Of a stretch of DNA of 64,000 nt, positions 11,157 through 23,644 are shown one piece after another (the first letter of the stretch is position 1; each line of letters starts with the position of its first letter). The notes under the pieces were generated by a model. It was not told where the DNA came from. It was given only the letters and a program-made list of their open reading frames with translations, and did no database searches. Source of the stretch: Panopea generosa (taxonomy: Eukaryota > Mollusca > Bivalvia > Adapedonta > Hiatellidae); contig CM055895.1 of assembly GCA_029582155.1 (NCBI GenBank), positions 19,021,004-19,085,003 on the forward strand, in the 5' to 3' direction. The position numbers and the translations under genes are program-made.

Positions 11157-11342
11157 ATGTTTAAATTAGCGTTTGTCGCGGTATGTGTTTTGTGTTTCCA
11201 GCCGACATACGGATTCAGCCGTTTACGTGGAGAAATTCCAAATGGATACAACGTGAAGCACCCGTGTCCGGGAAAAGGAATGTGGGACGCTGTTGGACAC
11301 ATGACCCCACTGCATTCGACGGCAAAGAATAAGTTCGGAGAT
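11157..11342 (+). CDS. Temptin-like gene, coding exon 1
   Basis: 62 codons: signal peptide plus the N-terminal third of the temptin domain (SRLRGEIPNGYNVKHPCPGK, MWDAVGHMTP). The exon ends GGAGAT|GTAAGT, a consensus donor at 11343, in phase 0. The upstream in-frame GTG at 11148 is not used as a start in eukaryotes. Confidence 0.85.
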
Positions 11343-23300: not shown

Positions 23301-23644
23301 AAGGACAGCGAACACCAGTAGTCGACCCAAATATGGGGATGTTAAGCGCAAACCTTGATCAAAGGAGAATACAAGGCATGGGAAGAATGGGTGGGTTTTC
23401 ACCCCGGTTTCCCACATCATTTATGTCTATGTTTCCTGGTCTAGGTCAAACACAAACCAGTTTGAGCCAGGGAATGATTCAGAGAAATGTTCAAAGCAGG
23501 ATCAATAGAGAAAGAGCACGTGTTGCTAGCAGAGGACCTGGGTCATTCGCGGGTAGAATAAGCGGCGGTGTAAGCTCGTCTGGTGGAGCTAGACCAACGT
23601 TCCAATATCCCGGAGTTCCTGGCTTTCGGATGTATCCGTGGTAG
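11157..23644 (+). CDS. Temptin-like secreted protein with a Gln/Gly-rich tail (3 coding exons)
   Basis: Join 11157-11342, 15202-15349 and 22665-23644; the frames agree across both GT-AG introns and give about 437 residues. Residues 1-19 are a signal peptide (MFKLAFVAVCVLCFQPTYG). Residues 20 to about 116 match temptin, the small secreted protein that acts with attractin in Aplysia water-borne pheromone signalling: IPNG, HPCPGKGMWDAVGH, the acidic DSDGDGLTNGAELGDPGC segment and GFCEP. The four family cysteines are at about 37, 75, 95 and 114; two extra (121, 130) follow. Unlike ordinary temptins of roughly 100 mature residues, the chain continues with a His-Gly/Gln-Gly repeat (about 137-178) and a Gln/Gly/Pro/Phe-rich tail to 437. 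The function of the tail is unknown; matrix, adhesive or scaffold roles are inference. The ATG at 11157 is the first in frame. Confidence 0.85.
11430..11770. repeat. 29-bp AT-rich minisatellite (intron 1)
   Basis: About 11.5 copies of GATATGAAATTATATATCTG plus TATTACTTA (29 bp), with point variants (AAAT/GAAAT, TTATAT/TTGTAT). It lies 90 bp inside intron 1 of the temptin-like gene. The sequence from 11771 to 12156 holds nothing recognisable. Confidence 0.9.
12157..12424 (+). mobile_element. tRNA-derived SINE, family A copy 1 (intron 1)
   Basis: The head reads TTAACTCAGTCGGCTACGCG (A-box like) and GTGAGTTTGAATCC (B-box like), followed by a body shared with the copy at 61783-62021. Shared body phrases are GTACTGGTTAACCT/GTATTGGTTAACCT, GGATCCCAG/GAATCCCAG, CGTCTRTTAGCA and GGCATAAAAA, ending in CTAAATATTCAA. 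Two copies with the same head-body-tail order establish a real family. The order tRNA head, conserved central domain and tail is known from mollusc SINEs; assignment to a named family needs a library search. Confidence 0.75.
12620..13345. repeat. 50-bp minisatellite (intron 1)
   Basis: About 14 copies of a 50-bp unit: CTTATTGGAAGTACAAAAAG, CAACCAAACGAAGAAATTAG, then a 10-bp variable spacer ending in GAT or GGT. Copies differ by 5-15%. Short open frames in both directions come from the repeat and are not genes. 13346-13600 is unique sequence without features. Confidence 0.9.
13663..13800. repeat. (ATT)n trinucleotide tract
   Basis: Mostly pure ATT/TTA repeats preceded by AGT and ATC triplets. 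It lies in intron 1 of the temptin-like gene and merges on the right with the GTA-rich region. Confidence 0.95.
13840..14665. repeat. (AGT)n compound trinucleotide region
   Basis: More than 700 bp dominated by AGT/GTA triplets, interrupted by CAG, TGG and AAG triplets and by a short AT-rich break at about 14205-14335. All apparent Val, Thr or Tyr homopolymer frames here are artefacts of the triplet repeat. Confidence 0.95.
14697..14882. repeat. (CCTG)15 (TCTG)30 tetranucleotide tract (intron 1)
   Basis: About 15 CCTG units (to 14759) change abruptly into about 30 TCTG units and end in a few TC pairs. No interruption is visible in either block, so the tract is probably highly length-variable. 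It lies about 320 bp upstream of coding exon 2. Confidence 0.95.
15202..15349 (+). CDS. Temptin-like gene, coding exon 2
   Basis: The acceptor is TTTTTAAG|GCT and the donor CCAG|GTATTT, phase 1 at the 3' end. The exon encodes residues 63-111, with cysteines 75 and 95 around the DSDGDGLTNGAELGDPGC block. This Asp/Asn-rich loop resembles calcium-binding DxDxDG loops and is the most conserved part of the temptin family. Confidence 0.85.
15627..17040. repeat. 26-bp minisatellite, subfamily 1 (intron 2)
   Basis: Unit CCATAATGGTATATACGACA + CACTGT (26 bp), with frequent variants CATACTTGTATATACGAC and a recurrent ATGATGATGCC insertion in place of CACTGT. About 54 copies. 26 is not divisible by 3 and the minus strand of the unit lacks stops, which creates long false reading frames. 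Confidence 0.95.
17041..17750. repeat. 26-bp minisatellite, subfamily 2 (intron 2)
   Basis: Same 26-bp period, different consensus: AATCTCCATATTTGTCTATA + AAACGC. About 27 copies, more diverged than the flanking subfamilies. The shift from subfamily 1 occurs within a few units near 17,040. Confidence 0.9.
17751..19340. repeat. 26-bp minisatellite, subfamily 3 (intron 2)
   Basis: Third consensus of the 26-bp family: ATGTCCATACTTGTATATAA + GACACA. About 60 copies, some with a 3-bp insertion (ACTTCTTGTATA). Order of variants is repeated locally (for example around 18,460-18,560 and 18,880-18,970), indicating block duplication. Degenerate sequence continues to about 19,590; 19,590-19,970 holds nothing recognisable. 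Confidence 0.95.
19970..20850 (+). repeat. Degenerate tandem repeat of roughly 190-340-bp units (intron 2)
   Basis: Related blocks recur four times. Each has a GACAACCANGTGTTTTAT-like phrase, then AGAATGCAGCATNNGGTG and GATATCA..TTTCCRGGGG. Three of them then carry a CAGTGNNNGGGTNCCAGGTT-like phrase and a T-rich end (TTTAAATACATC). Block anchors lie at about 20,014, 20,353, 20,600 and 20,788. The reading is confident as a repeat, not as any named family. Confidence 0.6.
20846..20947. repeat. Poly-C, (CA)n and (ACGC)n tract
   Basis: A C-run, then CA dinucleotides, then about 15 ACGC units. Alternating purine-pyrimidine sequence of this kind can adopt left-handed DNA. Confidence 0.95.
20950..21800 (+). 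mobile_element. LINE fragment (reverse transcriptase to ORF2 C-terminus, intron 2)
   Basis: Translation recalls non-LTR reverse transcriptase: IILGPLLIFIFIND, then IFADDTTLSI-type residues around the catalytic ADD, LTIDESLSWDEVIKKHSAN, FCRVIWGNC, and the C-terminal NIAPSYLKD...YTPRPNHELF, RRSLTNSGSKIWNSLPINVK. The pieces lie in different frames and stops intervene, so it is inactive. It is in sense orientation within the temptin-like intron. Similar conserved phrases are typical of Jockey/CR1-type elements; the clade is not certain. Confidence 0.8.
22011..22178. repeat. (ATTACC)n / (ATTATC)n hexanucleotide tract
   Basis: About 28 hexamers, starting as CATTAC and drifting to CATTAT. It lies in intron 2 immediately after the LINE fragment. 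Confidence 0.95.
22477..22590. repeat. (TTG)n tract 75 bp upstream of exon 3
   Basis: About 35 TTG triplets ending about 75 bp before the exon-3 acceptor at 22664. On the opposite strand it would read as poly-Gln, but no start, splice or family evidence supports a gene there. A UUG-rich transcript tract this close to a branch point could influence splicing. Confidence 0.95.
22665..23644 (+). CDS. Temptin-like gene, terminal coding exon with repeat tail
   Basis: The acceptor is TTTCTTTTAAG|GTTTCTG at 22664. The exon completes the temptin domain (GFCEP, then two additional Cys), runs through alternating HG and QG dipeptides encoded by GGACAA/GGTCAT hexamers (about 22740-22850), and then an extended Gln/Gly/Pro tail. 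The tail has AFGQSQPGFGQPQPG, a QQQQQQ run, and an arginine-rich, glycine-rich end (RINRERARVASRGPGSFAGR). It ends in TAG. The DNA shows no stop across 980 nt. Confidence 0.85.
22740..22850 (+). repeat. Coding hexamer repeat (GGTCAT / GGACAA)
   Basis: In-frame hexamers encode alternating Gly-His, then Gly-Gln dipeptides. Period six keeps the frame, so copy-number change alters only tract length. The CA-rich strand mirrors the simple-repeat bias of the neighbouring intron. Confidence 0.9.

What the first reader, a model, noticed from the sequence alone, without database searches (positions are those of the whole stretch)
11157..23644. Temptin domain fused to a His-Gly/Gln-Gly repeat and a 245-residue prion-like tail
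Seen: three exons join in frame; the temptin core keeps its four cysteines and the DSDGDGLTNGAELGDP block, but the last exon adds two cysteines, alternating HG/QG dipeptides and a Gln/Gly/Pro/Phe-rich tail (AFGQSQPGFGQPQPG). Known: temptins are small secreted proteins, and Aplysia temptin works in pheromone attraction. Inference: a tail of this composition on a secreted domain suggests self-assembly or metal binding (His), as in matrix, adhesive or mucus proteins, so this could be a temptin recruited to an extracellular scaffold.
Basis: partly seen in the sequence, partly recalled or inferred. Interest (0 to 1): 0.75.

Follow-up and report, generated by a model that had tools for sequence, protein, structure and literature searches.

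The report
Temptin with a repetitive matrix-like tail
A predicted secreted protein, probably from a mollusc, joins a pheromone-type 'temptin' head to a long repetitive tail of the kind seen in shell and other matrix proteins, and a neighbouring sister gene with the same layout shows that the fusion is real and not a prediction error.

Summary
Three exons (11157-11342, 15202-15349, 22665-23644, +) join in frame to 437 residues: a Temptin_C head (PF24784, 93.7 bits) and a long low-complexity tail. Exon 3 belongs to this gene. It encodes the fourth temptin cysteine, and a sister gene about 50 kb upstream on the opposite strand repeats all three exons with the same splice phases and a tail 40% identical (E 4.9e-11). 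The last 64 alignable tail codons look constrained (dN/dS 0.40, p 0.003). The His-Gly/Gln-Gly run is absent from the sister gene, so it is a copy-specific expansion and a poor clue to metal binding. The 'two added cysteines' also occur in a sea-slug temptin-monooxygenase. 'Prion-like' is borderline (Q+N at most 30% of 60 residues). The genome search listed 27 temptin exon-2-type places; the tail matched two, this gene and its sister. An abalone nacre protein is already listed as temptin-like with a disordered, R/G-rich C-terminus, so this is a new variant of a known kind. Most likely an extracellular matrix component; tissue and expression were not testable.

The parts
11157..11342 (+). Exon 1: start codon, hydrophobic N-terminus that looks like a signal peptide (by eye, about residues 1-19), first temptin cysteine C37
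   Evidence: counterpart in sister gene B and paralogue A
15202..15349 (+). Exon 2: temptin cysteines C75 and C95 and the DSDGDGLTNGAE calcium-type loop (residues 78-89)
   Evidence: Temptin_C 93.7 bits over residues 19-112
22665..23644 (+). Exon 3: fourth temptin cysteine C114, C121, C130, HG/QG run, low-complexity tail, stop codon
   Evidence: open frame; cysteine alignment; sister exon in B, E 4.9e-11
22739..22842 (+). 6-bp tandem repeat (CAAGGA, 17.3 copies) coding most of the HG/QG run
   Evidence: no such run in B
23450..23641 (+). C-terminal block of the tail, 64 codons aligned without a gap to B, dN/dS 0.40 (start coordinate approximate)
23774..23779 (+). AATAAA, candidate poly(A) signal 130 bp after the stop
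   Evidence: B has one at a similar distance (offset 129 after its stop)

Best explanation
The gene encodes a secreted temptin whose terminal exon was extended into a basic, Gly/Gln/Pro/Ser/Arg-rich low-complexity tail. The disulphide-stabilised head with its calcium-type loop is the binding module; the flexible tail is the linking part that holds the protein in an extracellular matrix, most likely shell or periostracum, possibly mucus or adhesive. Shown here: gene structure, head family, duplication of the whole layout, constraint on the tail's C-terminal block. Inferred: secretion, calcium binding, self-association or partner binding by the tail, and the tissue.
For: Layout duplicated in B with conserved splice phases and conserved ends of exon 3 around an exchanged repeat (HG/QG in this gene; a 17-residue WQQPQHTPLGPLQQEGR-like unit in B, three full copies and a partial one). 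C-terminal block dN/dS 0.40, p 0.003. Precedents in print: nacre protein similar to tyramine beta-hydroxylase/temptin with disordered C-terminus, R and G each above 10% (PMC6003135 Table 1); two temptin-like genes among the most mantle-specific of Dreissena polymorpha (PMC9210306); Temptin-1/2 among oyster shell candidates (PMC11464482).
Against: No expression, tissue or proteome data for this species. No tail homologue outside this genome in the protein search, so the matrix role rests on composition and analogy. FoldIndex did not separate head from tail. No usable structure model. Temptins are also attractants (PMC10075465) and one is female-biased in Utterbackia (PMC6754070).
Confidence: 0.5

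Rival explanations
1. It is still an attractant or recognition protein: the fast-changing head carries the signal, and the tail merely anchors it in mucus or slows its loss to water.
For: Mature head dN/dS is 1.03, 1.38 and 1.38 in the three pairs of C2 copies while the cysteines and the DSDGDGLTNG stretch are kept. Temptin attracts Biomphalaria in T-maze tests (PMC10075465, passages).
Against: None of the three ratios is significantly above 1 (p 0.53, 0.23, 0.26); relaxed constraint after duplication would look the same. A tail with a constrained end is not needed for a diffusible signal.
Confidence: 0.22
2. The tail is a propeptide, cut off during secretion, and the mature product is an ordinary short temptin.
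For: Dibasic pairs occur in the tail at residues 195 and 345 and an RxxR at 390.
Against: No R-x-[KR]-R site; such pairs are common by chance, and conservation in B was not tested.
Confidence: 0.1
3. The tail is a nearly neutral read-out of an expanding repeat in a terminal exon, without function of its own.
For: The HG/QG run is a 6-bp tandem repeat absent from B; the middle of the tail aligns poorly (codons 178-371: 40% identity, dN/dS 0.72 on an uncertain alignment).
Against: The gap-free C-terminal block has dN/dS 0.40, p 0.003, and the frame is open in both copies. This is one pair of genes and one simple test.
Confidence: 0.1
4. The gene descends from a temptin-monooxygenase fusion that lost its enzyme, the tail replacing it.
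For: The only database homologue found is such a fusion, and the same genome has them: monooxygenase exons lie downstream of the temptin exons in 4 of the 7 other genes I inspected.
Against: No convincing monooxygenase exon in the window (tblastn of P0001: only the two temptin exons at E below 1). By eye the intron-1 position is shared with the two C5 genes, while in the four fusion genes exon 1 seems to run several codons further. No family tree was built.
Confidence: 0.05
5. Exon 3 belongs to another gene and the fusion is a prediction error.
For: No transcript was available.
Against: Fourth cysteine in exon 3; only acceptor of 20 candidates that starts with Gly and has a pyrimidine-rich tract; sister gene with the same three exons.
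Confidence: 0.03

Closest known systems
Haliotis laevigata nacre protein 'similar to tyramine beta-hydroxylase/temptin' (idb_10968; PMC6003135 Table 1, passages seen)
   Same: Temptin-like, signal peptide, predicted disordered C-terminus; listed with values in the six nacre fractions and none in the four prismatic ones
   Different: Its composition is marked R/G, not Q; its sequence was not seen, so homology of the tails is untested; it may be a temptin-monooxygenase
Aplysia and Biomphalaria temptins
   Same: Temptin domain, four cysteines, DSDxD loop (family described in PMC2762978 and PMC10075465, passages)
   Different: Aplysia temptin is a short secreted protein (recalled); this one is 437 residues with a repetitive tail
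Lophotrochozoan temptin-monooxygenase hybrids, e.g. P0001 of Elysia crispata
   Same: 44% identity over the head and six aligned cysteines
   Different: Copper monooxygenase domains in P0001; none here
[quoted passage not shown]
   Same: Q/G/P-rich repeats; repeat differs between the two copies
   Different: No tail homologue found in the protein search; mantle expression unknown

Membership tests
Temptin (PF24784 Temptin_C) | Profile match above the curated cut-off | tested here: met
   93.7 bits against 27, residues 19-112
Temptin (PF24784 Temptin_C) | Four conserved cysteines | tested here: met
   C37, C75, C95, C114 aligned with P0001 C54, C93, C113, C133; disulphide pairing not testable
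Temptin (PF24784 Temptin_C) | DSDxD calcium-type loop | tested here: met
   DSDGDGLTNGAE at residue 78 fits an EF-hand-like loop pattern; calcium binding itself not tested
Temptin (PF24784 Temptin_C) | Secretion signal | tested here: inconclusive
   Hydrophobic N-terminus by eye only; no signal-peptide predictor was at hand
Short pheromone-type temptin | Protein little longer than the domain | tested here: not met
   437 residues, tail from exon 3
Temptin-monooxygenase hybrid | Cu2_monooxygen domains after the temptin domain | tested here: not met
   Pfam lists none; tblastn of P0001 on the window found only the temptin exons at E below 1
Shell matrix protein | Repetitive low-complexity region on a secreted protein | tested here: met
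   Composition and repeats; secretion inferred
Shell matrix protein | Mantle expression and presence in shell | not testable with these tools
   No transcript or proteome data for this genome
Prion-like domain | Q/N-rich stretch | tested here: inconclusive
   Maximum Q+N 30% in 60 residues here, 33% in B; no trained predictor was run
His-rich metal-binding protein | Conserved His repeat | tested here: not met
   7 HG here; B has no [HQ]G run of two or more

The most novel reading that the evidence does not exclude
A small cluster of duplicated genes turned a signalling-type temptin into anchored proteins: heads that diversify at about or above the neutral rate, displayed on an extracellular scaffold by tails whose middle is exchanged freely while both ends are held. 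That would be a recognition cue built into shell, mucus or attachment material, for example for settlement or aggregation.
Probability: 0.1. Interest if true: 0.75.

Novelty: new variant of a known kind. Interest (0 to 1): 0.45.

Why it matters
Temptin is known as a pheromone and also as a mantle or shell gene, and how one small head serves both is open. In this genome the head is followed by at least two long endings (a copper monooxygenase or a low-complexity tail) and, as a candidate, by a short one. That gives a concrete route from signal protein to matrix protein, and a gene cluster in which it can be tested.

Tried and rejected
Protein database: tail search, 790 candidates shared words and none scored E <= 0.01; head with full-length limits, 1 hit among 27 candidates; short-temptin search, 2 candidates and none significant. 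The database or its word filter therefore reaches few molluscan temptins, and absence there says little. No PDB relative by sequence for the head. Structure prediction of P0001 aligned with exon pieces 1 and 2 gave mean pLDDT 37.3; not used, and no fold search was run. Weak Pfam hits TrAA12 and TSP3_bac lie below their cut-offs; TrAA12 falls on the repeat.

Unmasked BLAST of the cluster was swamped by minisatellites and redone with masking. Exon 3 of paralogue A was not found in the readable DNA downstream of it or in window 1-11156 (tblastn); readable DNA ends about where collinearity would put it, so loss and missing data cannot be told apart.

Species not established: best homologue is a sea slug, so a mollusc is inferred. 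Paper searches naming temptin; shell low-complexity terms; DBH-like shell protein: (0 papers). One search was swamped by the word 'tempting'. No title listed there announces a temptin with this tail, but the library lacks most subscription journals; Peng et al. 2021 (temptin and the prismatic layer) was seen only as a reference-list title. Of the papers opened, only passages were read; PMC7747718 held no 'temptin' as a word, PMC3374290 none, PMC6007483 only 'tempting', PMC9759900 only in a reference.

Rejected: exon 3 of another gene; HG repeat as the working part. 

Full report
Observation. On the + strand three exons join in frame without a stop: 11157-11342, 15202-15349, 22665-23644. Both introns are GT-AG; phases 0 and 1. 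An in-frame stop lies upstream of the ATG at 11133 and AATAAA lies at 23774. The 437-residue product matches Temptin_C with 93.7 bits (cut-off 27) at residues 19-112. The last exon frame is open for 326 codons: about 2.5e-8 by chance at local composition, 0 of 2000 shuffles.

Does exon 3 belong? Three lines say yes. (1) The fourth conserved temptin cysteine, C114, is encoded in exon 3. (2) Of 20 acceptor positions in 15350-33000 that would put a cysteine in the right place, only 22665 starts with Gly and has at least 65% pyrimidine upstream. (3) The window's own genome (G000, 1.474 Gb in 39 contigs; window at C2:19021004-19085003) holds a sister gene, B, on the opposite strand, about 50 kb upstream: exons at C2:18982047-18981862, 18970911-18970761 and 18966733-18965865. 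It has the same phases, a 401-residue product, all eight cysteines of the window protein in the same order, and a tail match of 40% identity over positions 4-263 of the 264-residue tail query, E 4.9e-11. With tandem repeats masked, five collinear blocks of 71-81% DNA identity link the two genes: upstream region plus exon 1, exon 2, intron 2, the start of exon 3, and the end of exon 3 plus 3' flank. A third copy, A, at C2:19003957 has exons 1 and 2 (74% and 85% protein identity; 88% DNA identity over 976 columns around exon 1). Its exon 3 was not found in the readable DNA searched.

The tail. The window gene and B keep both ends of exon 3: a Cys module (GFCE..RNQCT.G.SH..C) and a basic C-terminal block (TSL.Q..I.RNVQ.RINRER...). 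The middle differs: 19 HG/QG dipeptides and FGQPQPG-type motifs here; in B no [HQ]G run, and instead a 17-residue unit like WQQPQHTPLGPLQQEGR in three full copies and a partial one. The gap-free C-terminal block of 64 codons has dS 0.73, dN 0.29, ratio 0.40, Fisher p 0.003. Over less certain alignments, codons 113-134 give 0.28 (22 codons), 178-371 give 0.72, and the whole 178-437 give 0.63. Composition of residues 178-437: G 15.8%, Q 14.2%, P and S 10.4% each, R 7.7%, F 6.5%, with 21 R+K and 6 D+E. Q+N reaches at most 30% in 60 residues (33% in B). 'Basic low-complexity tail' is a safer label than prion-like. FoldIndex gave about the same slightly negative value for head and tail, so disorder rests on composition.

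The head. Mature head codons 20-111 give dN/dS 1.03 (window-A), 1.38 (window-B) and 1.38 (A-B); none is significantly above 1 (p 0.53, 0.23, 0.26). DSDGDGLTNG and the head cysteines are kept in all three copies; the residue after it is Ala in two and Glu in B. Head synonymous divergence between the window gene and B (0.15) is far below that of the C-terminal block (0.73; Fisher p 1.6e-4), while nonsynonymous change does not differ significantly (p 0.19). Gene conversion of the 5' part is one explanation, a local mutation-rate difference another; an intron-2 block is 81% identical and the 3' UTR 120 of 157, so this is not settled.

Family in the same genome. The head query gave 37 places, of which I read 27 as exon-2 type and 10 as exon-1 type; 24 of the 27 lie outside the C2 cluster (the tool calls such counts lower bounds). 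The tail query gave 2 places, the window gene and B. I inspected 7 of the 24 other genes. Four (C12 near 13.848, 13.822 and 7.077 Mb; C16 near 61.289 Mb) have monooxygenase matches downstream; two on C5 and one on C12 (30.760 Mb) showed none in the DNA fetched. The C5 gene near 74.504 Mb has a candidate 28-codon exon 3 (GICEPVGSTQC...), which would make a short temptin. In 7 of 7 the frame running on after the [HQ]PG at the end of exon 2 lacks the cysteine, as expected if the intron at that point is shared. By eye the two C5 genes share the intron-1 position of the C2 genes, while in the four fusion genes exon 1 seems to run several codons further. The simplest history is that a short temptin's terminal exon was extended; no tree was built to test this.

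Known work (passages only). Temptin-monooxygenase hybrids were described as a lophotrochozoan novelty (PMC2762978). PMC6003135 Table 1 lists among major Haliotis laevigata shell proteins one similar to tyramine beta-hydroxylase/temptin with signal peptide, disordered C-terminus and R and G each above 10%, with values in nacre fractions and none in prismatic ones. This is the closest precedent and lowers the novelty. [quoted passage not shown] Temptin-1/2 are among oyster shell candidates (PMC11464482). Against a purely structural role: a recombinant temptin attracted Biomphalaria glabrata (PMC10075465), and a temptin is female-biased in Utterbackia (PMC6754070).

Mechanism. Most likely the head binds calcium and a partner while the tail ties the protein into an extracellular network (0.5). 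The step from composition to matrix function is inference by analogy. The HG/QG run comes from a 6-bp tandem repeat that B lacks, and should not be read as the working part.

Verdict.

Noticed in passing
window 11157-15349 and 22665-23641, compared with paralogue B: Synonymous divergence is about five times lower in the head exons (0.15) than in the C-terminal tail block (0.73), p 1.6e-4: possible gene conversion of the 5' part or a local mutation-rate difference; unexplained.
   Followed up: partly
window 15616-19328; similar arrays downstream of exon 2 of paralogue A: Intron 2 holds a 3.7-kb minisatellite (26-bp unit); related repeat sequence fills the corresponding DNA of paralogue A.
   Followed up: partly
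window 2407-6262 and 24366-25239: Two arrays of closely similar 19-bp units (about 202 and 46 copies) flank the temptin gene on both sides.
   Followed up: no
window 33085-37881 (+): Uninterrupted 1598-codon open frame without a Pfam match, Ser/Lys-rich; probably one large exon of a disordered protein.
   Followed up: partly
window 63615-63899 (-): Exon-like frame with an ATP-sulfurylase match (PF01747, 57.5 bits, cut-off 24.3).
   Followed up: no
window 55080-55367 (+): Fragment with a reverse-transcriptase match below cut-off (PF00078, 21.2 bits against 29.6), likely a retrotransposon remnant.
   Followed up: no
L021, L022, L024, L025 (contigs C12 and C16 of the same genome): Temptin exons followed by monooxygenase matches; 19 of the 27 exon-2-type places lie on C12 and the three of the C2 cluster and few others elsewhere, suggesting a C12 expansion of temptin genes (17 on C12 by recount of the list).
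   Followed up: partly
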